Source: Oscillospiraceae bacterium
GTDB taxonomy: Bacteria > Bacillota > Clostridia > Oscillospirales > Oscillospiraceae
Assembly (NCBI GenBank): GCA_910575695.1
Contig: CAJTGJ010000010.1
Coordinates: forward strand, 1 to 64,000
Direction: 5' to 3'
DNA: 64,000 bases
In this document: positions 38,944-54,670 of the stretch, piece by piece
How positions within the stretch are numbered: the first letter of the stretch is position 1
Layout of the letters: each line of letters opens with the position of its first letter
The notes under the pieces: model-generated
The model's input: only the letters and a program-made list of their open reading frames with translations
Told to the model about the DNA's origin: nothing
Database searches by the model: none
Translations under genes and position numbers: made by a program

Positions 38944-39465
38944 TTATTGTTTGGTACTCTTTTGCAATAGAGCCAGCGTATCATTTGAAAGCCGATTTCG
39001 TAACTCTGCCGATTCCAATAGCACGTTTCTGACTTTATCATAATCAATGGGGCTTAGTGGAATTTTGTGATGCTCCAATATATACTCGTAAGCTGTTAGC
39101 TTGCCGACAAAAGTTTTCTCGACATCCACAGACGGTAATTCTCTCAATTCTTCTGGTGAGAGACATCCAACATGGTTGTATATGTATCCAGCTGATAAGT
39201 CGATCAGTATTGGGTACTCTGACCATCCCTCCATCTCTGATAGATTTTCCTGTGTGTTTTCGATTTTTTCAGGGGCAAGCGAATAAAAGATTTTCTGTGC
39301 GCCAAACTTCTTATCCCTGTATTCCTCGATGCTTTTACATTGATGGAATATAGTAGCAATGGCTATGGCCTCAAAGAACAGGTCTGATACATCCCAGTTC
39401 CTATAGTAGCCTAGGTCTGCTATTTGACCATTCACATAAACTGCTATTGTTGGCCTAAATGACAT
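38944..39465 (-). CDS. 173-aa orphan protein at end of the cargo operon
   Basis: It starts at MSFRPTIAVYVNGQIADLG (39465) after GAAGG. It is alpha/beta and soluble (GWSEYPILIDLSAGYIYNH). No family is recognised. It follows the RCC1-like gene with a 12-base gap, so it belongs to the same operon and may be the last of the cargo functions. Confidence 0.7.
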   Translation of the reverse strand: MSFRPTIAVYVNGQIADLGYYRNWDVSDLFFEAIAIATIFHQCKSIEEYRDKKFGAQKIFYSLAPEKIENTQENLSEMEGWSEYPILIDLSAGYIYNHVGCLSPEELRELPSVDVEKTFVGKLTAYEYILEHHKIPLSPIDYDKVRNVLLESAELRNRLSNDTLALLQKSTKQ

Positions 39466-39477
39466 ACTGCACCTTCT

Positions 39478-40818
39478 TTAGGGAATCATAATATCATTCC
39501 ATCCTGATACATCTATATCCCAAGAGCCAATATCACCTACGAGTAAAACTGTTCCATCTGACTTCAAGCCTAATGTTTGTCTGCAATCTGAATCTATAGC
39601 TACAATATCAGTCCATGTTGATACCTCAGCTTGTCCTTCTTCATTTGATCCAGTGCATATGACTGTGCCATCTGATTTAAGTCCAACTGTAATTCTTAAA
39701 CCAGCAGCTATAGAAGTAATATCTGTCCACTCAGAAATATTACATTGCCCATTATCATTCCATCCAGCCGCACAAAGTGTACCATCTGTTTTGAGTCCAA
39801 TTATCTGAACATCTCCTGAACCCTCTGCCATTTGCTTAATGTCTGTCCATTGCCTTATAGGCCCGTAGTTATCATCTTCAACTACTTCTTCCGAGTCACC
39901 GTTCTTTTCCCAGTGCATTATGCCTTCATCAAAGAATAATTCATCACCAGCAACAACGATTTCTCCATCCAGTGTGATCCCTATTAAACTTGAATCGCCA
40001 ACCCATATATTTACAATATTTCCAATGTTATTTATTTTATCCATCCATTCAGATGCTTCATTATATGATACTCGCCCAGCTATTACAACACTTCCGTCTG
40101 ATTTTAATCCTGCCGTATAGTCAAATCCTGTTCCAATACAAACTATATCTTTCCATTTAGAAACATCACATTGCCCATCTGTATTACTACCTGTTGCAAC
40201 TACTGTACCATCTGCTCGTAGTCCAACTGTATGTGAACCACCAGCAGATATAGATATTAGATCACTCCATTCTGATACATCACATTGACCGTCATAACTC
40301 CGCCCAGTAGCCACAGCTGTTCCATCTGATTTTACTGCAACAATGTGATTATTCATGGTGAAAGAGCCTATGGAAATTGTTGTAGTCTTAATCAAGTCTC
40401 TCCAAAGTGTTAAGCTTCTACTTTGCGCATCCTCGTAATCTCCTGCTTTGCCAAATTCAAGTGCTGCTTCTTGGTACTGGTTATTACTCAAATATGATAT
40501 AGCATTATTGTAGTGTTGGATGTGTAAATCATCCAGTTTCCTGTCTTGAATCGTCCTATTGATAAATAAACCTGCTGCTCCAGCTGCTATACAAACTAAA
40601 ACTCCTAAGACAATAAAGCCTTTAGTAGATTTCTTTTTCTTTTTTGTATTTTCAAGCAGTTTTATCTTTTCTTTGCAATATATTATTCGTTGATCTGCAT
40701 CTCTATATCCTGAGATTGATGAAAATTCTGTAATTGCAGATTGAAGAACTGATATTTCATCACTTTTGATTTTTTCTAGCGCAGATATATACTTCCTGCC
40801 ATTTTCAATATCATTCAT
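39478..40818 (-). CDS. Single-pass membrane protein with RCC1-like repeats
   Basis: The 446-residue product has a helical N-terminal region with YRDADQ-type TPR-like motifs and a charged KKKKKSTK stretch. A single transmembrane helix (GFIVLGVLVCIAAGAAGLFI, about 67-87) and a GDYEDAQ repeat follow, and then at least six RCC1-like beta-propeller units from about 150 (AGGSHTVGLRADGTVVATG, VGLKSDGTVICTGSNEEG). Its N-terminal cytoplasmic part resembles the juxtamembrane part of the 728-aa J-like protein. The propeller probably faces outside and may bind a ligand. It lacks the J-like domain. Confidence 0.85.
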   Translation of the reverse strand: MNDIENGRKYISALEKIKSDEISVLQSAITEFSSISGYRDADQRIIYCKEKIKLLENTKKKKKSTKGFIVLGVLVCIAAGAAGLFINRTIQDRKLDDLHIQHYNNAISYLSNNQYQEAALEFGKAGDYEDAQSRSLTLWRDLIKTTTISIGSFTMNNHIVAVKSDGTAVATGRSYDGQCDVSEWSDLISISAGGSHTVGLRADGTVVATGSNTDGQCDVSKWKDIVCIGTGFDYTAGLKSDGSVVIAGRVSYNEASEWMDKINNIGNIVNIWVGDSSLIGITLDGEIVVAGDELFFDEGIMHWEKNGDSEEVVEDDNYGPIRQWTDIKQMAEGSGDVQIIGLKTDGTLCAAGWNDNGQCNISEWTDITSIAAGLRITVGLKSDGTVICTGSNEEGQAEVSTWTDIVAIDSDCRQTLGLKSDGTVLLVGDIGSWDIDVSGWNDIMIP

Positions 40819-40853
40819 AAATGCAAATTATCCTTTCTTACTGGTATATGCTC

Positions 40854-43040
40854 TTAATAATGATAGTTTCCATCTGAACATTCAACTGTACCAGCAAAGC
40901 TCAAGTTACTTGCTATAGAAATCCATTGATCTGTTGTTCCAGCATAATGTATTATAGAATTTTCTTTGCAATCTTCAAATGCCATACTTCCAATAGATAT
41001 AACACTCACTGGAATTGTTATATCCATTAAACCATAGCATGAGCTAAATGCATAGTCACCAATTGTTTCTACACCATCTGGAATATTCACTGTCTCAAGG
41101 CTCCAACACATGCTATATTCTCTGTATCCTATTTCAACTATGTGTTCAGGAATCGCAAGATTAACAAACCCACATCCACCAAATATTTCTTCTGGAAGTA
41201 TAGTTATATTTTTAGGGATGTTTATATCAACAAGATTTGTACAATCCTCAAATGTATGCCAGCCAAGTTCGGTCACACTCTCTGGGATATACACAGATTT
41301 CAGATTTTCAGAAAATCTGAACGCAGCACTTCCGAGTTCTGTGACACTTTCAGGAATTATATAGCTTTCATCTGCTTTTGCTTGTGGATAAGCCCAAAGA
41401 ATTGTCATGTCCTTACTAAACAGAACCCCGTCTACTGATGTGAAGAAATTATTATTCTCATCAACTGTAATCTCTTCAAGATAAGTAGCTCCATCAGCTA
41501 TTGCTCTTAATGATTCCACAGAGCCTGGTATATGCAGTGTTTTTATTCCACTTGCCCAAAATATTGCACCATCAATAGAGGTGAGATTCCTAGGTAACTC
41601 AATATGTGTTAGCCTTTCACACCAATCGAATGCAGAATTGCCTATACTGGTCACACTATCTGGAATTGATACTTCTGTCAGGTTACTCAATCCATCAAAC
41701 GCATATTCTCCTATATGTGTGCAACCATCTTCAATAATAATAGTGTTTATTTTATCATATATTTCATCTGAATCCCAAGGCCTTGTTCTGTTATGATCAC
41801 CGCCAAGAGAAGCACTGTAAGGTTCATAGTCATCATACATTGGCCCGGCCCCAGTGATTGTTAGTACTTTTGCATCTGCATCATATTCCCATTTTAGGTT
41901 TTCACCACATTTATGGTGCATATTATTTGTCACAAATAAACCAATCACAATAGCTATTGCAATGATGGGAATAGAACATAGTATGACCTTATTTCTGCTT
42001 TTGTGCTTTTTTATCTTATGCTGCTTTTCTTCCTCTGCTTTATCTACTATACCTTGAATTTTGGAAATTATATCCTCGATTTGTTGAGTTGAATCCTTGT
42101 AATCCGAGATTGATTCAAATTTAGATATAGCCTTTTTCAATTCTGAAATATCATTAGATGTAGCTATTCTTTTTGCCTCTTGATAAACTCCATCTTTTCT
42201 TGCATTTTCAGCTACTTCCTCTTTTTCCCTCTGCTCTCTGGCAGCTTGCTCTTCTGCTCTATGCTGTTCGTTGACAGCATCTATTACCTTCTGTGCATTA
42301 CCCAGGTTCTCACCTAATGCCAAGGCCTCTCTTGCTAATTCTTCCGCTCTTACTCTATCTGGATTAGCTTCAAAATACAACGAAAAAGCCAGTGCCCCTA
42401 ACAAACGGCTTTTTGCATAGGTGTCACCAGTTGAATTGGCTACGTTCAATCCGATCTGTAATGTTTTTCTCTCTTCTTCATAGTATTGTGATGACTTGTA
42501 GCGGTCACTAAATTTTAATGCGGACGCACTACGCCCGTATATACCAGCCTTTACCATATAATGCAATCCGTTTTGAGGGTTTGTTACTATGGCATTGTTA
42601 ATGAAACTCAGAGCTACGCTATGCTCACCGACCTCCATGTAAACAGCAGCTGCAAGGGAGTAGAGATCATCATCCGAACTATCTGCAACAAGTGCCAACG
42701 CCCGGTCAACTGCTATCTTTGCTAAATCATACTCGCCTCTGTCATAGTATGTATCTGCGTCTGTTCTCCACTTCTTAATTTCATCTTTCCGCTGCTGATT
42801 GGAATCCACAGGCTTGGATTGCTGCTTACTCTCTGCCAGCTCACGATCATATCTATTTTTTGTGGTGGTGCTTTTGAATACTTCCCGCGCATCTATAATA
42901 ATCGCCAACATTTTTGTAGCTTTTTCAGGATTGGTAAGCTCTCTGCGTTTCCAGGTGTTCTCCAGCTTGCTCAGTTCCTTATTGATTTCGTCCACACCCA
43001 GACTACTATCAATATTTAACTCTGCATAGTAATCAGTCAT
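40854..43040 (-). CDS. J-like/TPR membrane protein with extracellular leucine-rich (BspA-type) repeats
   Basis: It is 728 residues from MTDYYAELNIDSSLGVD (43040, after AAGGAG). The domains in order are a J-like domain (1-70, HPD replaced by RRE at 32-34), a TPR-rich helical stretch (about 95-300), a charged linker, a transmembrane helix (VILCSIPIIAIAIVIGLFV, near 360), and BspA/LRR_5 repeats (EVSIPDSVTSIGNSAFDWC) to the end. The likely topology puts J/TPR inside and LRR outside. It is the largest of four sister proteins in the operon. BspA repeats usually mediate adhesion or binding. Coupling of an LRR sensor to a J-like domain is unusual. Confidence 0.88.
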   Translation of the reverse strand: MTDYYAELNIDSSLGVDEINKELSKLENTWKRRELTNPEKATKMLAIIIDAREVFKSTTTKNRYDRELAESKQQSKPVDSNQQRKDEIKKWRTDADTYYDRGEYDLAKIAVDRALALVADSSDDDLYSLAAAVYMEVGEHSVALSFINNAIVTNPQNGLHYMVKAGIYGRSASALKFSDRYKSSQYYEEERKTLQIGLNVANSTGDTYAKSRLLGALAFSLYFEANPDRVRAEELAREALALGENLGNAQKVIDAVNEQHRAEEQAAREQREKEEVAENARKDGVYQEAKRIATSNDISELKKAISKFESISDYKDSTQQIEDIISKIQGIVDKAEEEKQHKIKKHKSRNKVILCSIPIIAIAIVIGLFVTNNMHHKCGENLKWEYDADAKVLTITGAGPMYDDYEPYSASLGGDHNRTRPWDSDEIYDKINTIIIEDGCTHIGEYAFDGLSNLTEVSIPDSVTSIGNSAFDWCERLTHIELPRNLTSIDGAIFWASGIKTLHIPGSVESLRAIADGATYLEEITVDENNNFFTSVDGVLFSKDMTILWAYPQAKADESYIIPESVTELGSAAFRFSENLKSVYIPESVTELGWHTFEDCTNLVDINIPKNITILPEEIFGGCGFVNLAIPEHIVEIGYREYSMCWSLETVNIPDGVETIGDYAFSSCYGLMDITIPVSVISIGSMAFEDCKENSIIHYAGTTDQWISIASNLSFAGTVECSDGNYHY

Positions 43041-43104
43041 AGCGTTTTTCTCCTTATGTTCCATGGCAATAATCACACTTTGGTTGACTATGTAGCTTCA
43101 TAGC

Positions 43105-44531: not shown

Positions 44532-44936
44532 TTATGCCAATGCCCTGGCAATTTCATCTCTGTGCTGCTTGCTAAACTTCAACTCAAAGAATTTTTCGCC
44601 AGACGTCATTGCGCCAAACACATCACTTCCGTATTTGGCTCCTGCCATAATCTTGCTCATGGTGCTTTCGCCTAGAGCAATCAGCTCAACATGCCGGGAT
44701 GTCCCCTGATCCAAAACATATACTTGAACCGCCCAGTAGCCAGCTACCAGCTTTAAGAGCCCTTTGCGCTCTTCGCCCGAAATCACAACTTCAATGTCTT
44801 GCTTAGACGCACCAAATCCTCCTAAAGGATCACCTTGAATCTTTTCAATTTGTCCACCAGCAGAGCGGAGTACATCTGCAATTTGATTTAGGTCTTTTCT
44901 GGTGTCAAATTGAATGGATTCTGTTTTCATAGCCAT
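44532..44936 (-). CDS. 134-aa orphan protein of the cargo operon
   Basis: The start near 44936 (MAMKTESIQFDTRKDLNQ) is backed by GGGAGA. It is alpha/beta and soluble (DIEVVISGEERKGLLKLV), without membrane segment or recognised motif. Its position among J-like genes suggests a partner protein. The gap to the next gene (44356-44531) holds no clear gene. Confidence 0.7.
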   Translation of the reverse strand: MAMKTESIQFDTRKDLNQIADVLRSAGGQIEKIQGDPLGGFGASKQDIEVVISGEERKGLLKLVAGYWAVQVYVLDQGTSRHVELIALGESTMSKIMAGAKYGSDVFGAMTSGEKFFELKFSKQHRDEIARALA

Positions 44937-45031
44937 TTGATCCTGTCTCCCTTCACTTTTGGCAATCAATTAAGAAAATTACAACGCTGATTGTACTTGA
45001 ATATCCTACAAATACCATTCATTTATGACCT

Positions 45032-46210
45032 TTAATCATTGTATGGTCCATCGCTTATGCCACATTCTTTGAGCCTGTATATAGCCTTGTCGAGTACAGT
45101 TCTCCAGAACATATTAAACCATTTCGATTTGCCAAACCACTTAACAAGCGTTGGACTCGTAGCATAATATACCTTAATAAACAATCTGCCGAACCAACTA
45201 TCTGCCAGTATATAGTCCCTAAATCTCCTTAACGCCCATACTTCGGGACAATCGTAGGAGCCGTATACCGCCGTTGCTATGTAACACCCGCCGTCACCGC
45301 CTGAGACGCTAGGATGATTCGCTCCCTGGTATCCCTGAAAATTTCGCTCCTGTTCATCTTGCTCTTCTTTGTCTTTTAGGACAAAATAAGACTGAGTATC
45401 TTTGAACACGCTTTCCCAATACTCTTCATGAACCTCTTTTAGCATTGCAATGTACCTATCCACATATTGCAGAGCTAATATTTTATTTACAGGGTCATCC
45501 CAATACCATGTAGATGCTAATTGATCCAACGCATAGGTTACATCCTTAAAACTATCCTGTTTTTCCCCCTCTTGGAGGATATACTTCAATACCTCTCTTT
45601 GCTTTTGAACCGCAGAATTAAGTGCATCAATATCAGCCTGCCGTCCATGCTCTAAATCATCCAGCACTTCAAATTTAATTGCAAAGAAAATGTTCTCTTT
45701 AGTTGTATAATAGTCCAGATTTTTAGGATTTTCTATGATAGCCTTGTTGATACAATCAATCGCTTTGTCGTAATTTTTTACTGACTTATAGGCTACAGCA
45801 GCTCTGTCATAGATTGAACAGTAATTGTCATCACCCTGCCGACAGTACAACAGAGCCTGATCGAACGATTGTGCCGCTAAATCAAACTGATGACTAATTG
45901 AATAGTTAAGTCCTTGATTGTACCACTTTTTTGCAATTTCTTTTCTCTCAGCATCCGTTGAATCTAATGTGTCATGAACTTCTTTTTTACTATCTTCAAG
46001 ATCCCGGTTATACTTTGCCTTGGTTGCCTCTGTTTTGAAGACTTCACATGCATCATCAATTAGAGTTAACATCTTTCGCGCTTTTTCCGGTTGATTGATT
46101 TCTCTCTGAATCCAAACCCGCTTTAGCTTTGTGAGTTCTGCATTGATCTCTTCAAGACTTGACTCTTTACTGATATTCAACTCCGTATAGTAATCAACAA
46201 GATTTGGCAT
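45032..46210 (-). CDS. J-like/TPR protein with CFI-box C-terminus
   Basis: It is 392 residues from MPNLVDYYTELNISKESS (46210, after GGAGG). The J-like domain at 1-70 has QRE at 35-37 instead of HPD. TPR-type repeats lie at about 90-290. After a glycine linker comes GGCYIATAVYGSYDCPEVW, the conserved CFI-box, a C-terminal domain of unknown function found in many bacteria, followed by hydrophobic and aromatic helices (WFGRLFIKVYYATSPTLVKW). It may act at the membrane. It is the third sister gene. Confidence 0.86.
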   Translation of the reverse strand: MPNLVDYYTELNISKESSLEEINAELTKLKRVWIQREINQPEKARKMLTLIDDACEVFKTEATKAKYNRDLEDSKKEVHDTLDSTDAERKEIAKKWYNQGLNYSISHQFDLAAQSFDQALLYCRQGDDNYCSIYDRAAVAYKSVKNYDKAIDCINKAIIENPKNLDYYTTKENIFFAIKFEVLDDLEHGRQADIDALNSAVQKQREVLKYILQEGEKQDSFKDVTYALDQLASTWYWDDPVNKILALQYVDRYIAMLKEVHEEYWESVFKDTQSYFVLKDKEEQDEQERNFQGYQGANHPSVSGGDGGCYIATAVYGSYDCPEVWALRRFRDYILADSWFGRLFIKVYYATSPTLVKWFGKSKWFNMFWRTVLDKAIYRLKECGISDGPYND

Positions 46211-46293: not shown

Positions 46294-48027
46294 TTACTGC
46301 GTAGGAAGGGGATATTTGGACCTTAGAGCACGTTCAACTCCCCTAATTTCGCTTTCTTCCTTTTGTTCCAGCTCTTTAATCAATCCGCTATATTTGGATA
46401 TGACCTTCTCGACTGTATCAATACTTGACATTGCTTCATATGCCGCTTGAATTTTTGCTTCAAGTTCCTTTTTCCGTTTCATAGCAAAAAAACCAAGTGA
46501 GCTAAGTTCATTCCGCATAGAAGAAATCTGTTGCTCAAGGTCTGCTATTTTCTGCTGATTTTTTACTGCCTCGTCTTTCTTCTGTTCATATTCTGATTCC
46601 AAATCTTTTCTATGGCCTGCGTATTTGTCTGCAATCTCTTGTTTCATAGGCTCAAGCTCTTTGTAATATTCCGCGTTGATTTTATTGCACTCTTCTATAT
46701 ACGCAGCCGCCTTATCTGCGATTTCCTTCAACCGGTTATATAATCCTTGCCCTTTCCTAAAATACCGTCTGACTAATCTAACGTGTGTTTCATCTCCATG
46801 TGCTTCGCTGGGAATACCTGCTATTCGTGTGGTGCTTACAATAGGGTATTTATCTCGCTTATCATACTCGCCATCAAAATCGAATTCAGCTAATATGTGT
46901 ATTATCGTATCAAGTTTTATAACCGTATTTTCAACATCATTAAAGTGCATAGATGGGTTGCGGTTGCTGATACGCTCATTGCTCCATTTCTTATATATAT
47001 AAAAAACGCCATCAGGTTTCAGTATAAAGCGTTCTTCTACTCTTTCTGTTTCATCAAAATCATCTTTACTATCAGGATGATACCAAAAATGCTCTTTCGT
47101 TGCTAAAAGCCATCCGTCATCACCATTTTGAGGAGTGCATGTTGAGATTATTTGCTGTACTATCTCTTCAATATCCTTCAAAAATGGAACATCCTCATTC
47201 TCGTATTGTCTAAGTGCGTTTAGGCCAACCCGCCTTGGCCGCTCTATTTCCTGAAGCATTTGCTTGGCTGTTTCGTTATTTGAATCATATTCCAAAGCTT
47301 GTCTTGCGAACTTTTCAACCATCCCATAATCGGGCTGTCCAAACAGCTCGAAATAGTATGATTTTGCTAATTGAACCATTGCATAAGCAGTCGTTTCAAA
47401 ATCATCAAATTTCGCACTTTTTTGTGCTAACATTTCACAAGTTTTTCTGTGGCTTATCACATACTTCGCTACATCACCATTGCACTTGTTCTGGTATTCA
47501 ATTACAGATATTAAAATATCTTCTTTTGTTTTATATGCGTAATACCAATCAGGCATTATACTAATCACTATATTGATATAGTTCATAGCATCTAAAAACA
47601 ACTCATTTTTATCATAGATATATGCTGCCCAAGCATAAACATCGGCTTCACTTTCACTGTACTCTGCCAATCTCAACGCTTTATCAACACAGATTTTGGC
47701 CAAATCAAATTGCTGATCGTTATAAAAATCCTGTGCTTCTTTAAGCCTTTTTCCACATTCCTGCCTCAACTCAATGTTGCAATCATCCTGATTAGCACCA
47801 TCCTCACTACGTTCAAGATCCTGATCATACTTTACTCGGACTTCCTCTGTCTCAAAAACCGCCTTCGCATCGTCAATCAATACCAGCATTTTCCGAGCCT
47901 TCTCAGGCTGAGCAACCTCTCTCTGATGCCATACCCGTTCTAACTTTGCAAGCTCAGCCTGAATTTCAGCAAGGCTCAACTCCTTGCCAATACCTAACTC
48001 TGCATAGTAATCCACCATATCAGCCAT
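46294..48027 (-). CDS. J-like/TPR protein with C-terminal coiled coil
   Basis: It is 577 residues from MADMVDYYAELGIGKELS (48027). The J-like domain at 1-70 has QRE at 35-37. TPR-like repeats lie at about 85-260 and a further alpha/beta part at about 290-430 (DDGWLLATKEHFWYHPDSK). A long coiled coil follows (LESEYEQKKDEAVKNQQKIA) to about 560. There is no membrane segment, unlike two of the sister proteins. It starts directly after the grpE stop, which couples it to the chaperone genes. Confidence 0.86.
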   Translation of the reverse strand: MADMVDYYAELGIGKELSLAEIQAELAKLERVWHQREVAQPEKARKMLVLIDDAKAVFETEEVRVKYDQDLERSEDGANQDDCNIELRQECGKRLKEAQDFYNDQQFDLAKICVDKALRLAEYSESEADVYAWAAYIYDKNELFLDAMNYINIVISIMPDWYYAYKTKEDILISVIEYQNKCNGDVAKYVISHRKTCEMLAQKSAKFDDFETTAYAMVQLAKSYYFELFGQPDYGMVEKFARQALEYDSNNETAKQMLQEIERPRRVGLNALRQYENEDVPFLKDIEEIVQQIISTCTPQNGDDGWLLATKEHFWYHPDSKDDFDETERVEERFILKPDGVFYIYKKWSNERISNRNPSMHFNDVENTVIKLDTIIHILAEFDFDGEYDKRDKYPIVSTTRIAGIPSEAHGDETHVRLVRRYFRKGQGLYNRLKEIADKAAAYIEECNKINAEYYKELEPMKQEIADKYAGHRKDLESEYEQKKDEAVKNQQKIADLEQQISSMRNELSSLGFFAMKRKKELEAKIQAAYEAMSSIDTVEKVISKYSGLIKELEQKEESEIRGVERALRSKYPLPTQ

Positions 48028-48627
48028 TTAAACACTCCTTTTCTTCCGTGCCACCACAACCTCTGCGGGTCTGATAACCTCGCCATTAAAGGTATAACCA
48101 TGTCTAATGATTTTGGTTACCCTGGGGGTATCCGCCATATCATCATTCTCAACACGAACTGCCTTGTTTAATGCTGGGTCAAATTTCTGTGTGACCTTAA
48201 TCCGTTCAACTCCACGACGGTTCAAAATCTCATACAACTCCTCGGCAATAGATGATGCAAATTCGAGACTTTCAGGAGTTGCCTTATCCAAACGGTCCAG
48301 CACAAGTATAATATCGGACACAAAAGGCTCTACATATGCGAATGATGCTTTTTCCTCCAAGGAGTTTATAAGCGCCGCTTTTTGCTTATCATCATATAAC
48401 CGCCTGACAAACAAATCCTGTAGACCTGCTATCTGTTGCTTTAACTCATTCAAAGCCGCCTCGTTGAATTTACACTGTTGCATCTGCTGTTCTGCTTGCT
48501 GGCTTTGCTCCTGCTGGATAGGTTGCACTAAGGCCTCCTGCCCATCAGGATTTGTTTGCGGCTTCTGACTTTGCGTTTCTGCTGACTCCATCGGCACTCT
48601 ATCCCCCAGTTCATAGTCGAAGCTCAT
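48028..48627 (-). CDS. grpE: GrpE-type nucleotide exchange factor
   Basis: The 199-residue protein has an acidic, Gln-rich N-terminus and a coiled-coil helix followed by a C-terminal beta domain with the GrpE signature (RVTKIIRHGYTFNGEVIRPA, then EVVVARK). GrpE releases ADP from DnaK. It lies between dnaK and the J-like genes (31 bases after dnaK) and starts after GGAGCGAGG. This is a dedicated second copy, since housekeeping grpE is normally beside dnaK/dnaJ elsewhere. Confidence 0.9.
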   Translation of the reverse strand: MSFDYELGDRVPMESAETQSQKPQTNPDGQEALVQPIQQEQSQQAEQQMQQCKFNEAALNELKQQIAGLQDLFVRRLYDDKQKAALINSLEEKASFAYVEPFVSDIILVLDRLDKATPESLEFASSIAEELYEILNRRGVERIKVTQKFDPALNKAVRVENDDMADTPRVTKIIRHGYTFNGEVIRPAEVVVARKKRSV

Positions 48628-48658: not shown

Positions 48659-50242
48659 TTATTCTACTGTTGTTTTCCCGACCACACTAATCGCATCTTT
48701 CACCTGATCGTCGGAGAGGTTAGATGTTCTATCGATTTGGAATGTTCCAAGACTCTGGTTTGTAACCTTGTCAATGACCTCAATATAGATAGTCTGGTCA
48801 GGGTCATATGCGTAGATGATTTCTACCGGAGATCCCTTTGGGTATGCAGGTATAGTCAAACTCTTGCTGCCGATGACTTTAACATATTCTACATCTTCAT
48901 CATTACCCTCTGTTACCTCAACCAAGATTCGCGTCTGCTGGTCATAAACTGTCCTTACTTCCACGGAGCACTTGGTCGGTATCTTTGTATTGTGAGGGAT
49001 AATTATTGTATTGACTTTTTTATTGGTGAATTCAGATTCCAGGGTGATTACCCCAAGCGACTGAGAAGTAACGTCCGAAACTGTAATAGACGCCCTGCTT
49101 GAATCCTCGCCGCTGTCAGCACTCGCCCCGGCTACTGTACTATTGGGACTGTTTCTATCTAATGTACTTGCAAAGATAGCAGCTCCCTGTGCAACCGCCA
49201 AATCCGGATCTGCTTTGAATGTAACTTCCTTGCCAGATACTTCTTTGAGCATTTTTTTCACCATAGGCATCTTTGTTGAGCCGCCTACAATGAGCAGGTG
49301 ATCTATGTCAGCCCAAGTCAGGTTAGCTGCGCTCATAACCTCTTCAACAAGGAATTGTGTTCGCTGCATCAAAGATTGCGCTTCTGCCTCAAATTCCTCC
49401 CTCGTAATACTGATTTTTGGCGACTTCCCATTTACAGTGAAGGGTAAGCGCGTCGTTTCCACGCTGGACAGGGCTATTTTCATCTTTTCTGCTTTTTCTC
49501 GGATATCTGCCATCAAAGCATCGTCTTCATCATCAACCGCACACTCATTTTCTTCCAGTTTCCTAATGATAAGTTTAATAATCTGCTGGTCAAAGTTGAT
49601 TCCACCCAGCTTGTGATCTCCGTCTGTGGCAATTACATCATAGCTTCCCTTGTTTATATCCATGATGGTAACATCAAATGTGCCTCCACCAAGATCATAA
49701 ACCAGCACTTTGCCTTCCTTGGACGAATCAATCCCAAAGGCGATTGCTGCCGCGGTAGGCTCATTGATGACTCGCAGTACATTTAAGCCTGCTATCTTAC
49801 CTGCTTGTTTTGTTGCAATTCTGGCGGCGTCATCAAAATATGCCGGCACAGTTATGACTACGTCCTTAACGGCACCTGTATCCTCGCGTTGCTCCGCATC
49901 CTTACATACTTTCTTCAGGATCAACGCTGAAATCATTTCAGGCGTATACTCTTTGCCGCTCGGGCCCTGCACCTTAAAATCAATGGTTCTGTCACCCATA
50001 TATCGCTTGATAAACTGAACTACATTGTCGGGGTCCATAGCTGCAGAGTTTTTTGCCTGAGCACCAACTAAGGATTCATCACCACCATCAGCACTTTGAC
50101 CGACGAAATACACTACAGACGGTGTTGTATCCGAACCTTCCATGTTTTTGATGATATGAGCTTCATCGTCCTTGTAAACCGCTATTGCTGAGTTAGTTGT
50201 ACCAAGGTCAATGCCGAAGACCTTTTCATCTTTGCTGCCCAT
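48659..50242 (-). CDS. dnaK: DnaK-type Hsp70 chaperone lacking the C-terminal lid
   Basis: It is 527 residues from MGSKDEKVFGIDLGTTNS (50242, after AAGGAG), compared with about 610-640 for standard DnaK. The nucleotide-binding domain is complete: phosphate loops GIDLGTTNSAIAVY and LVYDLGGGTFDVTIM, the adenosine motif LLIVGGSTKMPMVKK, and ADPDLAVAQGAAI. The interdomain linker reads SITVSDVTSQSLGVITLE without the usual LLLDV. A beta substrate-binding part (CSVEVRTVYDQQTRILVEV) follows and the protein ends shortly after it, without the alpha lid. It probably works with the linked GrpE and J-like proteins on specific clients, such as the small helical proteins and FtsK-like ATPase upstream. Confidence 0.93.
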   Translation of the reverse strand: MGSKDEKVFGIDLGTTNSAIAVYKDDEAHIIKNMEGSDTTPSVVYFVGQSADGGDESLVGAQAKNSAAMDPDNVVQFIKRYMGDRTIDFKVQGPSGKEYTPEMISALILKKVCKDAEQREDTGAVKDVVITVPAYFDDAARIATKQAGKIAGLNVLRVINEPTAAAIAFGIDSSKEGKVLVYDLGGGTFDVTIMDINKGSYDVIATDGDHKLGGINFDQQIIKLIIRKLEENECAVDDEDDALMADIREKAEKMKIALSSVETTRLPFTVNGKSPKISITREEFEAEAQSLMQRTQFLVEEVMSAANLTWADIDHLLIVGGSTKMPMVKKMLKEVSGKEVTFKADPDLAVAQGAAIFASTLDRNSPNSTVAGASADSGEDSSRASITVSDVTSQSLGVITLESEFTNKKVNTIIIPHNTKIPTKCSVEVRTVYDQQTRILVEVTEGNDEDVEYVKVIGSKSLTIPAYPKGSPVEIIYAYDPDQTIYIEVIDKVTNQSLGTFQIDRTSNLSDDQVKDAISVVGKTTVE

Positions 50243-50260: not shown

Positions 50261-50521
50261 CTATTTATTGAGTTGCCTGATATAATCCTCTAATCCCGTT
50301 TTCAGAGTATATAAAGAACCATCTGCACACACAAGTTCTTTCATTGCCTCCGAAAGGGATGTGACCAGATATTGACCAGACTGCTGATCACCAAAAGTTC
50401 TCTGGGCCCTGTTCATGGCCTCCAATATTTCATTCTTGCAGCCTGCTATGTTGTGTGTGCATATAGATAGCTGCTGCTCTGCTTTAAGTATTTCCCTGGC
50501 GATGTCTTCAATAGAAATCAT
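50261..50521 (-). CDS. Small helical protein, fourth of the WXG-like set
   Basis: It is 86 residues from MISIEDIAREILKAEQQL (50521), overlapping the previous gene by 14 bases. It is a two-helix architecture with a short turn (FGDQQSG) near the centre, like WXG100 family proteins, though the W-x-G itself is absent. It is possibly an export substrate or adaptor of the FtsK-like ATPase. Confidence 0.72.
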   Translation of the reverse strand: MISIEDIAREILKAEQQLSICTHNIAGCKNEILEAMNRAQRTFGDQQSGQYLVTSLSEAMKELVCADGSLYTLKTGLEDYIRQLNK

Positions 50522-50804
50522 TGCTGTCACCATCATCTATCCACTCCATTACATCCAACTCATTCGCACATTGGTATGCTGTATTGAGTCTCTGTAATGA
50601 GCTTGATATTTCTTGAAGCGCACTTTGACAAATACCTATTAACCTTGCATCTGCACCAGTGGGAGAGCCGCCTACAGTTTGATTTAAAGCCGCTATCAAA
50701 CGATGTACCTCGTTGCTGACGTTGGACACATTTGTCGATATGCTTTGTATATCATTCCGCAGGTATATCCTCTCCCGCTCTTTTTGCCTGTCTATCACCC
50801 ACAT
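50508..50804 (-). CDS. Small helical protein, third of the WXG-like set
   Basis: It is 98 residues from the start MWVIDRQKERERIYLRND (50804), next to the previous stop. Helical halves are joined by VGGSPTGADARLIGIC, reminiscent of the turn in WXG100 proteins, and the end is acidic (MEWIDDGDSNDFY). An earlier GTG at 50837 is possible. The set of four such genes follows the FtsK-like gene, as in type VII-related loci. Confidence 0.7.
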   Translation of the reverse strand: MWVIDRQKERERIYLRNDIQSISTNVSNVSNEVHRLIAALNQTVGGSPTGADARLIGICQSALQEISSSLQRLNTAYQCANELDVMEWIDDGDSNDFY

Positions 50805-50805
50805 A

Positions 50806-51066
50806 TTATTTGGACAAATTCTGGAGACAGGTATCACAGGTCCGTCCCAGCGTCCGCATAGACGCCGCAGCCTCTCCCAGTGTATGGTTAACAGCTGCCA
50901 GCGCCATAACCGCCTCCTGGCCTGTTTGACTTCCTCTCACAAGGTTTGATATGATCGTACCCTGGCCTGCGAGATTCTGATTCGCTGCTGCCACCATAGA
51001 TGAAAGCTCTTCTGACATACGCTTGATATTTTGCACTTCACCAATTAGTTCCTGAATGGATGCCAT
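50806..51066 (-). CDS. Small WXG100-like helical-hairpin protein
   Basis: It is 86 residues from MASIQELIGEVQNIKRMS (51066, after AAGGAGG). Two amphipathic helices flank a turn VRGSQTGQEAVM, which resembles the W-x-G hairpin turn with R-G-S in its place. The C-terminal helix has CDTC. It could be a secreted or adaptor protein of the ATPase, as WXG100 proteins are for EssC. No signal peptide is present. Confidence 0.75.
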   Translation of the reverse strand: MASIQELIGEVQNIKRMSEELSSMVAAANQNLAGQGTIISNLVRGSQTGQEAVMALAAVNHTLGEAAASMRTLGRTCDTCLQNLSK

Positions 51067-51088: not shown

Positions 51089-51346
51089 TTAGATTGTCCG
51101 CACTCTCAGCAGCTTTTCCTTTGCTGCCTGCAATTTCTCAATCGCCTGGTTTACCTGAGCCTTTGTGGCTGCCAGCTGCTGAATCATATCTCGTCCATAG
51201 TTTTGTGTGCTTCCATCGAATGCGGCGTTAGTTCTGTTTGTGACCTTATCAATTTCCCCGATATAGGAAGTGAGCTTCCCAATCTGGTCGTCAATTTGGC
51301 GCTCCGCTGCCGATACCGCTGCGATGATTTGTTGTACCAATGACAT
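51089..51346 (-). CDS. Small WXG100-like helical-hairpin protein
   Basis: It is 85 residues from MSLVQQIIAAVSAAERQI (51346, after GGGAGA). The central turn NAAFDGSTQNYGRDM with flanking helices follows the WXG100 layout, F-D-G replacing W-x-G. It is the first small gene after the FtsK-like gene. In type VII systems such proteins form heterodimers that are recognised by the ATPase; the same is proposed here, by analogy. Confidence 0.78.
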   Translation of the reverse strand: MSLVQQIIAAVSAAERQIDDQIGKLTSYIGEIDKVTNRTNAAFDGSTQNYGRDMIQQLAATKAQVNQAIEKLQAAKEKLLRVRTI

Positions 51347-51365: not shown

Positions 51366-53858
51366 TTATGCGTCCCAGAGTTGATTTTTAAACCTGGTTA
51401 CGTCCTCTTGTGTAATGGGGCTATATGGTATAAACACCATTTCTTCTGAAAATTCAATGCTATCGCTTACTAATGCCCTGTTGGTCTGCGCCGACCACTT
51501 TACAAACGGATTTGTCAGAGATTGAACGGTTCGCTCATCTGTTCTCAGGAACACCTTGCTGTTAAATGCGTCTGTATTGCCATATCCAGCCACCTGAGAG
51601 GTGAAACTGGATGCCTTGATCCACCAACCTATAAAGTGCATTTTCTTTGCAGGAGCTGTTTCAACAAATTTCTTTAGAGCGCTTCCTTGCCCATAAGGGT
51701 CTGCTTCAAACCTCCATCTGTCCAGTGCCGAGCAAAACACATAGATTGATTCACCGGATTCTTCCTGTTCATTTAGATTCTTGATCTCGTTATCAAAGTC
51801 GTCCGGTGCAATGCTTTCAATAAAATATCCCATGTTCTCTATGAGTTCTGCAAACCTGGGGTACAGCTTATCGTAAGATATTCCTTTTCCCTCGAAGTCA
51901 CAGAACAAAAATCTTGCGGTTCCTTTTGTGTTTTGAATTGCAAGTGAAATCGCTATGCTCTGCATGATGCCGGCCGCTTGATTACATTCGCCGTCAGAGG
52001 TCCCGATGATTGCTATGTTTCGGCCTGGTTCATCTGATAACGGCAGTGCAATATGTTTACCGTCAATCGAAATCCTATCTCCTATAAATGCAACCGGTAA
52101 ACTTCCTTTGTTCCTTGCTGCTTTTATAGATGCAATGCTGTTTGATACTGTAATTCTTCGTTCACTCTCAAAGACATATGGAGGATTTGTAGTTGTTCTT
52201 ACTTTTTCCCACCAAATGGTTCTTAACGGTTTAAGTACTTTTTCATCCGCAAATGCAACGATTGTTTTCCTGTTTTGCGACACTTCTCCATAATCCAGAT
52301 TTACAACCGCTTCTCTGGGCATCAGGAATGCTGCCGCTGAATTATTGAGCGATAAGGTCTGCTGTGATTCTGATATTGAGTTCTTCAAAGCTATCCTGAT
52401 TGGTACTTGACCAAATATGCTGTCTCGCTTTTGCGCCAATACTACGTTTCCGCTGATAGTTTGAGATGCCAGTATAAAATGGATTCCTGCTGCTCTAAAC
52501 AGTCTCACTGATTTTTCCAGTAAGTCCGCTACCTTTTGCCCTTCCTGCATCTCGCTCCCAAACATCATCTGAAATTCGTCTATAATGACCAGTATTCTTG
52601 GAATTTGAATTTCTGGGTGACAGGCTCTAAGCTCCCGAATACTCTTTACGCTGTTTTCCTTCAGCAAACTCATTCGCCTCTGATATTCTTCATAGAGCGA
52701 ATTTAAGACTGCTATACCAAAACTCACATCGCTTTCCAGACCTAATGCCTTTGCGTGTGGCAGGTATTCATCTTGGCCTATATTTGAAAATGGCTTGAAT
52801 GTGACTCCTTCTTTAAAGTCAAGCAAATATAATTGTAGTTCTTGAGGCGAATACCTCTGGCACAGACTATGAATGATGACTGATATCAAATTTGACTTGC
52901 CTTGTCCTACCGCGCCTGTGATAATCGCATTGTGCCTTTGGTTTATTTCATCTCCAATCGTTATCTTCATATCATTGATACCAAATTTTCCGATTGAAAA
53001 AGTCAACCCATCTATACTGCTCTGGTCCCACATCACGGATGTGTCGTTTATTTCAGTGAATTTAATTGTAGGGAGTTGAGTATGCTTTGTCGCCTCTATA
53101 AATTTCTCGCAGCTCTTTATGATTGTCTCTGGAGCTTGAGGTTGATAGATACTAATTGCGTTCGCCGTGGTGGACGCTTTGCTCGTGTTAGCGACTTTGC
53201 TTACACGATTTCCATCTACTTCAAGCACAGTTATGTTAGGCGCTATCGCTTCTACTGGTATATCTATTTCTCTGCCGCTAGACGTTTCCACAGACATAAT
53301 CGTGGTTGAAACGATTAGGAATGACACTCCAAACCTAGGCCCATTTCTCATTAGTAAAGAAATTTTAGACCTTGTATCTGCATCTATTGTCCCCATGTCC
53401 AAGGAGAGAACGATAAGTTTGTAGCTTTCTACGGGCCTTTGAATGGATTCCCGAAATGCGATCAGAGAATCCTTTCGGCCTTGAATTACATTCTGTGTTG
53501 CTTGGATTTGCTGTTTCGCATAGGTCAGGTGAGACAACAGATCCCTATGATCCGAAATTAACTCCAATACTCTTGCTTCCCCAGCAGATAAAGACGCGAA
53601 TGGCGAAAATATGCCAGATAAATCACTGTCATATCCCCAGATAGATAGTTGTCCTGGAGCAGTCTGAGTTATTGCCTGATAAATTATGTGTCGTGCCAAA
53701 TCGACTTCTTCTGGTTGATATGTGTTGTTAATCCAGACATTCCCTTTCCCAATAAAATCGACGCGCATCTCACCCATCGACAATGTACTATAGACATCTA
53801 AAATCGTACCCAAGAGAATATCCCCCCAAAGAAAACATGCATGAAAGATACGTTCCAA
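51366..53858 (-). CDS. FtsK/SpoIIIE (EssC-like) ATPase, first gene of the cargo operon
   Basis: It is up to 830 residues. A TTG at 53813 that follows GGGGGG gives 815 residues and is a better start than TTG 53858. An N-terminal part without membrane segments is followed by an FtsK domain with Walker A GAVGQGKS (near 317) and Walker B RILVIIDEFQMMFG (near 424). A second, degenerate ATPase repeat (FIGDRISIDG, NIAIIGTSDGECNQAAG) lacks the Walker A lysine, as in EssC-type proteins with tandem domains. FtsK-type motors move DNA or proteins. WXG-like partners argue for protein secretion or sorting. It may be truncated at the N-terminus compared with membrane-anchored relatives. Confidence 0.86.
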   Translation of the reverse strand: MERIFHACFLWGDILLGTILDVYSTLSMGEMRVDFIGKGNVWINNTYQPEEVDLARHIIYQAITQTAPGQLSIWGYDSDLSGIFSPFASLSAGEARVLELISDHRDLLSHLTYAKQQIQATQNVIQGRKDSLIAFRESIQRPVESYKLIVLSLDMGTIDADTRSKISLLMRNGPRFGVSFLIVSTTIMSVETSSGREIDIPVEAIAPNITVLEVDGNRVSKVANTSKASTTANAISIYQPQAPETIIKSCEKFIEATKHTQLPTIKFTEINDTSVMWDQSSIDGLTFSIGKFGINDMKITIGDEINQRHNAIITGAVGQGKSNLISVIIHSLCQRYSPQELQLYLLDFKEGVTFKPFSNIGQDEYLPHAKALGLESDVSFGIAVLNSLYEEYQRRMSLLKENSVKSIRELRACHPEIQIPRILVIIDEFQMMFGSEMQEGQKVADLLEKSVRLFRAAGIHFILASQTISGNVVLAQKRDSIFGQVPIRIALKNSISESQQTLSLNNSAAAFLMPREAVVNLDYGEVSQNRKTIVAFADEKVLKPLRTIWWEKVRTTTNPPYVFESERRITVSNSIASIKAARNKGSLPVAFIGDRISIDGKHIALPLSDEPGRNIAIIGTSDGECNQAAGIMQSIAISLAIQNTKGTARFLFCDFEGKGISYDKLYPRFAELIENMGYFIESIAPDDFDNEIKNLNEQEESGESIYVFCSALDRWRFEADPYGQGSALKKFVETAPAKKMHFIGWWIKASSFTSQVAGYGNTDAFNSKVFLRTDERTVQSLTNPFVKWSAQTNRALVSDSIEFSEEMVFIPYSPITQEDVTRFKNQLWDA

Positions 53859-53919
53859 AGTTATTCGTCCATCTAAATGCTATTTAGTTACGGAACACTC
53901 AGAGGCATCGACAAAAAGG

Positions 53920-53931
53920 TGTACCTTCCTG
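53920..53931 (+). repeat. Left inverted repeat TGTACCTTCCTG
   Basis: It matches the reverse complement of 54026-54037 exactly over 12 bases and with 17 of 19 when flanks are included (AAGG and TAA at the ends). It lies about 60-110 bases upstream of the FtsK-like gene. Confidence 0.75.
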
Positions 53932-54025
53932 TAAGCCAATTTTCCTCTTGGAAATATCTATTGAGGTATTGAAAGCAGGCTGTTTTTGTGGTATTCTATT
54001 CCATATCAAAAAAAAGCGCATTTTG
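53932..54025. other. Candidate invertible promoter segment
   Basis: The 94 bases between the inverted repeats hold a good extended -10 promoter pointing to the plus strand, away from the FtsK/DnaK operon. No comparable promoter is visible on the minus strand. The serine recombinase gene lies immediately on the other side, ending 22 bases from the repeat. Inversion would turn the promoter toward the operon. Confidence 0.5.
53969..53997 (+). promoter_or_regulatory. Promoter in the inverted-repeat segment, facing away from the operon
   Basis: The -35 TTGAAA (53969-53974) and -10 TATTCT (53992-53997) are separated by 17 bases, with TGG before the -10 (extended). It reads toward the recombinase gene, antisense to it. 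Confidence 0.6.
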
Positions 54026-54037
54026 CAGGAAGGTACA
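54026..54037 (-). repeat. Right inverted repeat of the same segment
   Basis: CAGGAAGGTACA reads TGTACCTTCCTG on the minus strand. A longer palindrome-like stretch AGGAAGGTACACATTCCT lies over it (54028-54045). Confidence 0.75.
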
Positions 54038-54058
54038 CATTCCTGTAAAATCGCCTTC

Positions 54059-54670
54059 TTACAACAATTTGGCCTTTTCGTAAATCTCTGCCCGGTAGCG
54101 GAAGGTGGACAGAGGCATTCCGCACTCCCTCGCCGCCGCTGTCCCTGTGATAGTCCCGGCTTTCCACCGCTGGTAGGCACTGTGATAGTTCTCTGGGAGG
54201 GGCCTGGGCGGCCTTCCAAAGCGAACACCCCTGGCCTTTGCCGCCGCAATACCCTCCTTTTGCCGCTGGCGGATGTTAGTACGCTCATTCTCCGCGACAA
54301 AGGACAACACCTGCAAAACAATGTCGCTTAGGAAAGTTCCCATCAAATCCTTACCCCGCCGAGTATCCAACAAAGGCATATCCAGCACTACAATATCAAT
54401 TCTCTTTTCTTTCGTGAGAATGCGCCATTGTTCCAAAATTTCCTCATAGTTTCGCCCCAGTCGGTCAATGCTCTTAATGTAAAGCAGATCGTCTGGCTTT
54501 AATTTTCTTACCAGCTTCTTGTATTGAGGGCGCTGAAAGTCTTTGCCAGACTGTTTTTCAACGAACATATTTTTCTCCGGGATAGACAACTCTTGCATTG
54601 CGATCAGCTGGCGATCCTCATTTTGATCCGTAGTAGAAACACGAATATAACCGTATGTATTATTGGGCAC
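54059..54670 (-). CDS. Serine recombinase (resolvase/invertase family)
   Basis: It is 203 residues from GTG 54670 after GGAGGG. The catalytic motif YGYIRVSTTDQNEDRQ holds the nucleophile Ser12. Further family motifs are IKSIDRLGRNYEEILEQW, LSDIVLQVLSFVAENE and a C-terminal helix-turn-helix (GTAAARECGMPLSTFRYR). These enzymes resolve cointegrates or invert DNA segments between inverted sites. It lies 22 bases from the repeats bordering the segment upstream of the FtsK-like gene, so promoter inversion is plausible. It has its own promoter. Confidence 0.9.
   Translation of the reverse strand: MPNNTYGYIRVSTTDQNEDRQLIAMQELSIPEKNMFVEKQSGKDFQRPQYKKLVRKLKPDDLLYIKSIDRLGRNYEEILEQWRILTKEKRIDIVVLDMPLLDTRRGKDLMGTFLSDIVLQVLSFVAENERTNIRQRQKEGIAAAKARGVRFGRPPRPLPENYHSAYQRWKAGTITGTAAARECGMPLSTFRYRAEIYEKAKLL

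What the first reader, a model, noticed from the sequence alone, without database searches (positions are those of the whole stretch)
38944..54670. Dedicated Hsp70 machine fused by context to an FtsK/EssC-like ATPase and WXG-like proteins
One minus-strand operon, in order: FtsK/SpoIIIE ATPase with a degenerate second domain, four small helical proteins (two WXG100-like), DnaK, GrpE, four J-like/TPR proteins, an RCC1-like membrane protein and two orphans. No EssB, EsaA or other type VII membrane components are visible. The pairing of a full chaperone set with a type VII-like ATPase is not a system I recognise. The hypothesis is that chaperones load or prepare small helical proteins for export or assembly, with LRR and propeller receptors outside.
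Basis: partly seen in the sequence, partly recalled or inferred. Interest (0 to 1): 0.9.

Follow-up and report, generated by a model that had tools for sequence, protein, structure and literature searches.

The report
Chaperone-coupled EssC-like ATPase operon
A bacterium carries a conserved gene cluster that joins a secretion-type motor, four small helical proteins and a private, oddly rewired heat-shock chaperone set with receptor-like membrane proteins; some relatives of the cluster carry toxin-like proteins, so it is probably an unstudied weapon or defence machine.

Summary
One minus-strand unit (53837 to 38944) encodes a three-domain EssC/EccC-like ATPase, four small helical proteins, DnaK, GrpE, four J-like proteins and membrane proteins with LRR and RCC1 ectodomains. 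It recurs: an ATPase scan gave 38 loci, mostly Clostridia and Actinobacteria by record title, and in 200 genomes of the host's family the full-length ATPase and this DnaK occur in the same 4. (1) The chaperone set is altered: HPD is found in 0 of 46 J hits (0 of 28 aligned J domains; 23 have Arg/Lys at the Asp position); the DnaKs lack the lid, have a changed linker, and keep the HPD-contacting Arg in 6 of 15 (13 of 13 housekeeping DnaKs from the host and relatives). (2) In Actinomyces the fourth small gene has a shared N-terminus with different C-termini, one EndoU-like: a polymorphic-toxin pattern. EssB, EccB and WXG100 were not detected in the host genome. Best reading: a receptor-linked, chaperone-gated effector-deployment system built on the soluble EssC-like ATPase/WXG module already noted beside CoCoNuT systems. 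New variant of a known kind; function untested.

The parts
51366..53837 (-). FtsK/EssC-like ATPase, 823 aa in the frame used here (listed ORF starts at TTG 53858); three ATPase-fold domains by model, only the middle one with P-loop (aa 308) and Walker B; no TM segment predicted
   Evidence: Pfam/NCBIfam, PDB profile hits to EccC and YukB, AF2 model pLDDT 87.7 and Foldseek match to EccC 4nh0, motifs, hydropathy
51089..51346 (-). helical protein h1 (85 aa)
   Evidence: first gene after the ATPase in related loci; alignment A4; weak ESAT-6 profile hit E 0.019 among coiled-coil hits
50806..51066 (-). helical hairpin protein h2 (86 aa)
   Evidence: AF2 hairpin, helices 4-42 and 47-85, pLDDT 94.2
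50508..50837 (-). helical protein h3 (109 aa as listed; relatives start about 11 residues later)
   Evidence: alignment A7; related to h1
50261..50536 (-). helical protein h4 (91 aa)
   Evidence: alignment A8; related to h2, E 4.7e-11
48659..50242 (-). Lidless DnaK/Hsp70 (527 aa) of an operon-type clade
   Evidence: Pfam HSP70 profile 1-511 of 599; motifs and length; tree; same 4 of 200 genomes as the ATPase
48028..48627 (-). GrpE (199 aa)
   Evidence: Pfam GrpE 2.5e-20
46294..48027 (-). J1: HPD-less J-like domain plus C-terminal region with weak coiled-coil-type matches (577 aa)
   Evidence: Pfam DnaJ 0.0013; J-profile vs PDB; HPD column reads HQR
45032..46210 (-). J2: HPD-less J-like domain plus TPR (392 aa), no TM predicted
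   Evidence: Pfam TPR_2 5.7e-9, DnaJ 0.011; HPD column IQR
44532..44969 (-). p145: unknown protein, similar to the N-terminus of a 571-aa multi-TM operon protein in L044 and L045
43105..44460 (-). J3: HPD-less J-like domain plus C-terminal TM segments (likely start 44355)
   Evidence: Pfam DnaJ 0.011; TM; HPD column RRR
40854..43076 (-). J4: HPD-less J-like domain, weak TPR, one TM (aa 364-382), BspA-type LRR ectodomain (likely start 43040)
   Evidence: Pfam LRR_5 6.5e-53; TM and charges; J alignment, HPD column KRR
39478..40818 (-). Membrane protein with one TM (aa 68-86) and RCC1-type repeats after it
   Evidence: Pfam RCC1_2 3.4e-28; TM and charges
38944..39465 (-). orfA: orphan, 173 aa, last gene of the unit
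   Evidence: no Pfam hit at E<=0.5; no relative among the ORFs of the 38 loci
38886..38911 (-). terminator-like stem (10 pairs) after orfA
   Evidence: consensus scan

Best explanation
An accessory, probably mobile, conflict system. Inferred mechanism: membrane proteins with LRR or RCC1 (elsewhere C-type lectin) ectodomains sense something outside; their cytoplasmic J-like/TPR parts, or sister J-like proteins, hold a dedicated lidless Hsp70 and GrpE at the membrane; this chaperone set keeps the small helical proteins (in some relatives carrying a C-terminal toxin-like domain) in, or releases them from, an assembly state; and the soluble EssC-like ATPase, probably a hexamer by analogy with FtsK, loads, unfolds or threads them. 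Shown by computation: the gene set, its recurrence, the ATPase architecture, the HPD-less J domains, the altered DnaK, and different C-termini on one shared N-terminus in Actinomyces. Inferred: topology, gating by the chaperone, ATPase action on the helical proteins, mobility. Not shown: export out of the cell, the target (phage or rival bacteria), and any effector in the window's own copy.
For: The 38 loci were found by the ATPase; with the window (39 sets) helical proteins were found in 35, J-like in 31, DnaK in 14, GrpE in 14. The 4 without helical proteins are three weak Planctomycete loci and one short partial match; the other 4 without J (L048, L049, L062, L066) have a contig end where J would lie. 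DnaK is on the ATPase's strand with a gap under 2 kb in all 14. In 200 genomes of the host's family, host included, 62 have some match to the ATPase at E<=1e-10, but only 4 near full length (the host; three at 62-64% identity), and these are the 4 with this DnaK at E<=1e-120. The operon DnaKs form one clade, support 1.000, apart from 13 housekeeping DnaKs, and its main groups resemble those of the ATPase tree (no formal test). Ectodomains: LRR_5, RCC1, Lectin_C. Effector-like slot-4 gene: L067 and L068 share 62 of 89 N-terminal residues while the rest aligns no better than shuffled sequence; L067's C-terminus matches EndoU_bacteria.
Against: The window's four small proteins carry no effector domain, and a search of its genome with the h2 profile finds only h2 and h4. 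EndoU scores 23.9 bits, below its 25.3 cut-off, with no NCBIfam or PDB hit. The different C-termini come from four Actinomyces loci, two of which (L068, L069) share theirs, and no DnaK lies in these loci, so toxin-like gene and Hsp70 are not seen together there. Slot 4 of Clostridia and of Actinobacteria are only weakly similar (22% probability). DnaK was not found in 21 of the 35 loci with helical proteins (several on contigs that end nearby), so it is not strictly needed. Housekeeping DnaKs of Actinobacteria were not in the tree. PMC13012618 notes that in some systems even an HPD/AAA J domain keeps some stimulation, so HPD loss need not mean a new mechanism. No membrane channel was identified. 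Eight of 11 carrier genomes have true WXG100 proteins elsewhere and 2 have EccB, so a link to ordinary type VII systems in those is not excluded.
Confidence: 0.5

Rival explanations
1. True secretion: a minimal type VII-like exporter without EssB/EccB, in which the chaperones keep hairpin substrates unfolded and the ATPase pushes them through the TM segments of J3 or of the p145-type multi-TM protein.
For: ATPase is closest to EccC/EssC by profile and fold; small helical partners in tandem; J hits with one or more predicted TM segments 34 of 46; the known relative is proposed to act in secretion (PMC11090510).
Against: The ATPase has no predicted TM segment; EssB in 0 of 11 and EccB in 2 of 11 carrier genomes, neither in the host; no conserved channel was identified, and the p145-type multi-TM protein was seen only in L044 and L045.
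Confidence: 0.25
2. Intracellular anti-phage or stress switch: nothing is exported; the chaperone-ATPase complex holds a toxic or pore-forming helical assembly in check and releases it when a trigger is met.
For: Distantly related ATPases on plasmids sit beside vWA, PP2C, kinase and CARF genes or TerD genes, as in PMC11090510; Hsp70-GrpE-DnaJ/TPR genes occur in predicted GAP1-N2 conflict systems (PMC7159879); patchy distribution (4 of 200 in family; 1 of 398 in phylum, the host itself, at E<=1e-60).
Against: Ectodomains point outward; no nuclease or clear killer in the window's copy; PADLOC scan of 10 of the 14 genes gives only ATPase similarity to SspH and mad8 and weak coiled-coil hits.
Confidence: 0.2
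3. Assembly of a surface structure: the chaperones and ATPase build the LRR/RCC1 surface proteins or a helical filament, with no conflict role.
For: Surface-type domains are encoded in the same unit; small proteins without added domains in most Clostridia loci.
Against: Ectodomains differ or were not found in other loci while the ATPase-helical protein-J core persists; a patchy distribution does not fit housekeeping.
Confidence: 0.05

Closest known systems
EssC-like ATPase/WXG100 module of Type III-A CoCoNuT extensions; stand-alone copies attributed to Anantharaman et al. 2012 (not held; through PMC11090510, section 10 read)
   Same: Three ATPase domains with only the central one active; no TM segments; small helical partner genes beside it
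   Different: Here no long N-terminal coiled coil, no TerY-P, CARF or McrBC genes; DnaK, GrpE and HPD-less J-like proteins instead; four small proteins, with no W-x-G in the aligned h1 and h2 sets
Type VII secretion (EssC/EccC)
   Same: ATPase fold; small helical partners
   Different: ATPase without predicted TM; EssB/EccB not detected in the host genome; single P-loop; chaperone set
GAP1-N2 GTPase-centred conflict systems, theme 2 (PMC7159879, section 29 read)
   Same: HSP70 with GrpE, DnaJ/TPR fusion proteins and membrane association in actinobacteria and firmicutes
   Different: No GTPase family found in this unit; the motor is an FtsK/EssC-like ATPase with small helical proteins
Mitochondrial PAM import motor (Pam16/Pam18, mtHsp70, Mge1; starts of abstracts seen)
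   Same: J-type proteins at a membrane regulate an Hsp70 with a GrpE-type factor at a translocation machine; that Pam16 itself lacks HPD is recalled
   Different: Analogy only; no homology claimed; no J protein with HPD was found in these operons
LXG polymorphic toxins of T7SSb (recalled; abstracts seen)
   Same: Helical N-terminal part plus different C-terminal domains with a following small gene (Actinomyces loci)
   Different: Short (about 90 aa) shared N-terminus; no LXG match in Pfam scans of L065, L067 and L069; not seen in the window

Membership tests
Type VII secretion system | EssC/EccC-type multi-domain FtsK ATPase | tested here: met
   PDB profile hits 4nh0 7.3e-23 and YukB 3.1e-20; Foldseek 4nh0 E 9.0e-28 over 931 columns, TM 0.44, rmsd 12.1
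Type VII secretion system | membrane-anchored ATPase | tested here: not met
   no hydropathy TM segment in the window protein
Type VII secretion system | EssB or EccB partner | tested here: not met
   host genome (95.6% complete, 296 contigs): no PF10140 or PF05108 match; 0 and 2 of 11 carrier genomes. EsaA, EssA, YukD not tested
WXG100 | Pfam PF06013 above cut-off and W-x-G turn | tested here: not met
   13.2 and 12.6 bits against 27.3; 0 matches in host genome, but matches in 8 of 11 carrier genomes, their operon proteins not being singled out; hhalign of h1 and h2 vs 4 WXG100-type sequences gives probability 4% and 1% (small control)
WXG100 | about 100-residue helical hairpin | tested here: met
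   AF2 of h2, 86 aa, two helices, pLDDT 94.2; Foldseek lists EsxA but nothing below E 0.5. Only h2 was modelled
CoCoNuT-type EssC-like ATPase/WXG module | three ATPase domains, only the central active | tested here: met
   one P-loop pattern per protein in 29 of 29 aligned (29 of the 39 sets); model and fold match
CoCoNuT-type EssC-like ATPase/WXG module | long N-terminal coiled coil | tested here: not met
   longest helix in the first 250 residues of the model is 22 residues (97-118)
CoCoNuT-type EssC-like ATPase/WXG module | TerY-P, CARF or McrBC neighbours | tested here: not met
   none in the 14 genes of the unit; annotated beside a distant relative, L081
GAP1-N2 GTPase systems, theme 2 | HSP70 + GrpE + DnaJ/TPR proteins | tested here: met
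GAP1-N2 GTPase systems, theme 2 | TRAFAC GTPase with GAP1 | tested here: not met
   no GTPase family in the Pfam lists of the 14 genes; GAP1 itself not searched by name
DnaK/DnaJ/GrpE chaperone machine | J domain with HPD | tested here: not met
   J fold supported (profile vs DNAJB8 5.5e-16), but HPD in 0 of 28 aligned and 0 of 46 hits; the host's housekeeping DnaJ has it
DnaK/DnaJ/GrpE chaperone machine | DnaK with ATPase motifs, SBD-beta, lid and hydrophobic linker | tested here: not met
   ATPase motifs and SBD-beta region kept; lid absent (510-529 vs 605-628 aa); linker changed
Polymorphic toxin systems | shared N-terminus with non-homologous C-termini | tested here: met
   L067 vs L068/L069; L065 shares the N-terminus more weakly; Actinomyces loci only, not the window
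Polymorphic toxin systems | adjacent immunity gene and toxicity | not testable with these tools
   small following genes seen; function needs experiment

The most novel reading that the evidence does not exclude
An Hsp70 machine that has replaced the HPD trigger: membrane-tethered J-like domains, mostly with Arg/Lys at the HPD aspartate, act on a co-evolved lidless DnaK with a relaxed HPD-contact Arg and altered linker, and use it not for folding but as a receptor-controlled switch that arms helical toxin assemblies driven by a soluble EssC-like motor.
Probability: 0.3. Interest if true: 0.88.

Novelty: new variant of a known kind. Interest (0 to 1): 0.72.

Why it matters
PMC13012618 calls HPD the universally conserved motif by which J proteins drive Hsp70. 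Here operons from Clostridia and Actinobacteria pair HPD-less J domains with their own DnaK, in which the HPD-contacting Arg is often lost and the linker changed. That is a natural test of how Hsp70 can be driven without HPD. It also links Hsp70 chaperones to type VII-like ATPases and, in relatives, to toxin-like genes, which makes an unstudied class of bacterial conflict system directly testable in cultured carriers such as Bifidobacterium species.

Tried and rejected
Rfam over the window: 0 matches at gathering scores. PADLOC (10 of 14 genes): ATPase similarity to SspH and mad8, and weak coiled-coil hits. IMG/VR: 164 pattern matches, none confirmed as a relative. Phage records: 186 with a match, none covering 80% of the query. 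Plasmids: 309 with a match, one covering 80% (Rhodococcus pseudokoreensis). WXG100 membership by Pfam, hhalign and Foldseek: not supported. Two pairs of helical proteins by duplication: h2-h4 is the strongest link, but h1-h2, h1-h3 and h1-h4 are also significant, so not settled. A caspase-like C-terminus in L072/L080 was suspected from a recalled motif and not supported. The first DnaK alignment used a wrong-strand frame as the housekeeping reference; replaced. The listing was cut in the middle, so the Bifidobacterium rows were seen only in part. The 'J' count of 31 sets includes hits through TPR, LRR or coiled-coil parts; the HPD alignment uses 28 of the 46 J hits, from 22 of the 31 sets (left out: L043, L045, L046, L051, L053, L057, L067, L068, L069; L045 is a near duplicate of L044), and some of its rows end soon after the HPD column; one search covers all 46 by text search of the first 150 residues, 42 of them with a J-type start.
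Full report
What is there. The minus strand of the window from 53837 down to 38944 holds 14 genes in one direction with short gaps: an FtsK/EssC-like ATPase, four small helical proteins (h1-h4), DnaK, GrpE, two J-like proteins without predicted TM (J1, J2), a small unknown (p145), two membrane J-like proteins (J3; J4 with a BspA-type LRR part), a membrane protein with RCC1 repeats, and an orphan. Family scans confirm the named domains (Pfam, all 14 genes; NCBIfam, 10 of 14). The two longest terminator-like stems of a consensus scan lie at 54837-54795 and 38911-38886 (17 such sites found, 12.2 expected in shuffles). A resolvase gene lies just upstream. The host genome has its own housekeeping DnaK, with a DnaJ that has HPD beside it.

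It recurs. In 200 genomes of the host's family, host included, 62 have some ATPase match at E<=1e-10, mostly 25-33% over the motor domain; 4 have it near full length: the host and three others at 62-64% identity. In the three, the small genes, DnaK and GrpE follow. Two have two J-like genes and a p145-like gene after them; on the third the contig ends inside a J-like gene after GrpE, and a TPR/TM/LRR-type gene lies upstream. A reciprocal search with the DnaK at E<=1e-120 gave the same 4 genomes. At phylum level 1 of 398 genomes, the host itself, matched at E<=1e-60, so the system is sparse. A scan of GTDB contigs with the ATPase gave 38 loci. By record title they are mostly Clostridia, Bifidobacterium, Actinomyces and Propionibacteriaceae, with Thermophilibacter, Buchananella, Nocardia, one record titled Saccharibacteria (L050), one 'uncultured bacterium' (L042) and three weak Planctomycete matches. 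Three records (L043-L045) have the lengths of the three family contigs and are taken to be the same loci; L044 and L045 are nearly identical. With the window, 39 sets were examined: helical proteins in 35, J-like in 31, DnaK in 14, GrpE in 14. The four without helical proteins are the weak or partial loci; the other four without J have a contig end where J would lie. A Rhodococcus plasmid carries Hsp70, a TPR protein, GrpE, the ATPase and small genes in a row.

The ATPase. In 29 of 29 aligned members (of the 39 sets) a P-loop pattern occurs exactly once, as GAVGQGKSN, in the middle domain. The AF2 model (mean pLDDT 87.7) matches the three-ATPase EccC structure 4nh0 (Foldseek E 9.0e-28, 931 columns, TM 0.44, rmsd 12.1) and EssC domains 2-3 (4lya, 2.6e-21). 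No TM segment is predicted in the window protein.

The small proteins. Four small genes follow the ATPase in most Clostridia loci and several actinobacterial ones; L053 has two (output cut in part). h2 is predicted as a hairpin with helices 4-42 and 47-85. The four families are related by profile comparison, strongest h2-h4 (E 4.7e-11), weakest h3-h4 (2.2e-4). They are not demonstrably related to WXG100 (the WXG100 profile had only 4 sequences). Weak hits to ESAT-6 (E 0.019) and an ESAT-6-like protein (E 0.29) sit among many coiled-coil hits and prove nothing. EssB was found in 0 and EccB in 2 of 11 carrier genomes, neither in the host. WXG100 was found in 8 of 11, not in the host, so links to ordinary type VII systems in other carriers are not excluded.

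The chaperones. The J-like domains have a real J fold: their profile finds DNAJB8 at 5.5e-16, and 22 of 30 full proteins match Pfam DnaJ at E<=0.05. None of 28 aligned domains has HPD; the Pro is absent in all, the His is kept in 4, and the Asp position is Arg in 19, Lys in 4 and other in 5. A text search finds HPD in the first 150 residues of 0 of 46 J hits, and the plasmid's TPR protein lacks it too. The operon DnaKs form one clade (support 1.000) apart from 13 housekeeping DnaKs and three other Hsp70s (the split L074 DnaK was left out). These housekeeping DnaKs come from the host and 12 relatives; actinobacterial ones were not included. Counted from just before the first motif, the complete operon DnaKs are 510-529 residues long against 605-628, lacking the lid. 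The Arg before the NEPTAA motif, taken as R167 of E. coli DnaK (mapping by motif, number recalled), is kept in 6 of 15 operon DnaKs, the window's among them, against 13 of 13 housekeeping ones. The linker LLLLDVTPLSLG, read in 12 of the 13 housekeeping DnaKs (one missed by the pattern), becomes forms like ITISDVTSQSLG in the 14 operon DnaKs read. PMC13012618 (passages) states that HPD is universally conserved, that its Asp contacts R167 and its His contacts L391 of the linker, and that DnaK R167A is suppressed by DnaJ D35N; it also notes that in some systems an HPD/AAA J domain still stimulates to a degree. The changes therefore sit where J and Hsp70 meet. Against a simple story: the window's DnaK keeps the Arg, and Arg-keeping DnaKs also occur with HPD-less J domains.

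Evolution. On the ATPase tree (midpoint root) DnaK occurs in three groups (Nocardia, Rhodococcus and two Bifidobacterium; other Bifidobacterium with Thermophilibacter; Clostridia) and was not found in the Actinomyces/Propionibacteriaceae group and several Clostridia. With the similar DnaK groups this suggests, but does not prove, an early gain and later losses. L042, the closest relative (ATPase 79%), has no DnaK between the small genes and J and keeps only the C-terminal end of GrpE.

Membrane and surface. Of 46 J hits, 34 have at least one predicted TM segment, mostly C-terminal to the J and TPR parts; one of the 34 (L046, 567 aa) looks like a signal peptide of an LRR protein. In J4, the RCC1 protein and L044's J578 the single TM is preceded by 7-9 Lys/Arg in 15 residues, which puts the J-like or N-terminal part inside and the LRR or RCC1 part outside (positive-inside rule); several actinobacterial ones show no such bias. 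A C-type lectin protein with one TM is in L055, and an ECF sigma-factor protein lies upstream in L057.

Effector-like genes. In four Actinomyces loci the fourth gene after the ATPase is longer. L067 (269 aa) and L068 (396 aa) share 62 of 89 N-terminal residues (L067 and L069 64 of 89), while the rest scores at the level of shuffled sequence; L068 and L069 share their C-terminus (279 of 306); L065 shares the N-terminus more weakly and has a third C-terminus. L067's C-terminus matches EndoU_bacteria at 5.7e-5, just below the cut-off, with no NCBIfam or PDB hit. This is the pattern of polymorphic toxins. No DnaK lies in these loci, and the window's small proteins carry no such domain. No second copy of the shared N-terminus was found in the three genomes where it matched, of 8 searched.

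Known relatives. PMC11090510 (passages and section 10) describes an EssC-like three-domain ATPase active only in the middle domain, without TM segments, with WXG100 proteins, in CoCoNuT loci, and cites Anantharaman et al. 2012 (not held) for stand-alone copies. L081 looks like such a neighbourhood by its annotation. PMC7159879 (abstract, outline, passages and section 29) describes HSP70-GrpE-DnaJ/TPR genes in GTPase-centred conflict systems. No paper with the ATPase-small protein-Hsp70 combination appeared in the listings of searches of the open library (98 and 112 listed 15 of 53 and 15 of 189); subscription papers are mostly missing from it.

Conclusion. The finding is real and recurrent. 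It is a variant of the EssC-like ATPase/WXG module with a dedicated and unusually altered Hsp70 set and receptor-like membrane proteins, probably used to deploy effectors. Mechanism and target are inference.

Noticed in passing
window 54059-54670: Serine recombinase (resolvase) gene directly upstream of the ATPase, with a 19-pair terminator-like stem further upstream; may mark the cluster's mobility.
   Followed up: partly
window 45032-46210 (C-terminus of J2): Tail CYIATAVYGS...LRRFRDYIL...YYATSP resembles the CFI-box C-terminal domain (recalled, no call).
   Followed up: no
L049 4087-4345 and L051 3735-4373: Clostridia MAGs: an extra domain of about 90 residues in front of a small helical part in slot 3 (L051; L049 is cut by the contig end); no Pfam or NCBIfam hit for L051.
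   Followed up: partly
L072 13379-14179 and L080 15355-16173: Helical N-terminus plus a conserved C-terminal region with AVIHG and F[AS]CSTG motifs, followed by a conserved small gene; no Pfam or NCBIfam match to the C-terminal region (both), no PDB match (L072 only searched).
   Followed up: partly
L042 3717-4385: Closest relative has no DnaK here and keeps only a C-terminal GrpE remnant inside a 222-aa frame.
   Followed up: no
L074 6179-7813: DnaK of the Bifidobacterium goeldii locus lies in two frames (split gene).
   Followed up: no
window 36590-37729 and 9176-12235: DUF932 protein and a large gene with N6-methylase and SNF2-related matches, of kinds often seen on mobile elements (recalled).
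   Followed up: no
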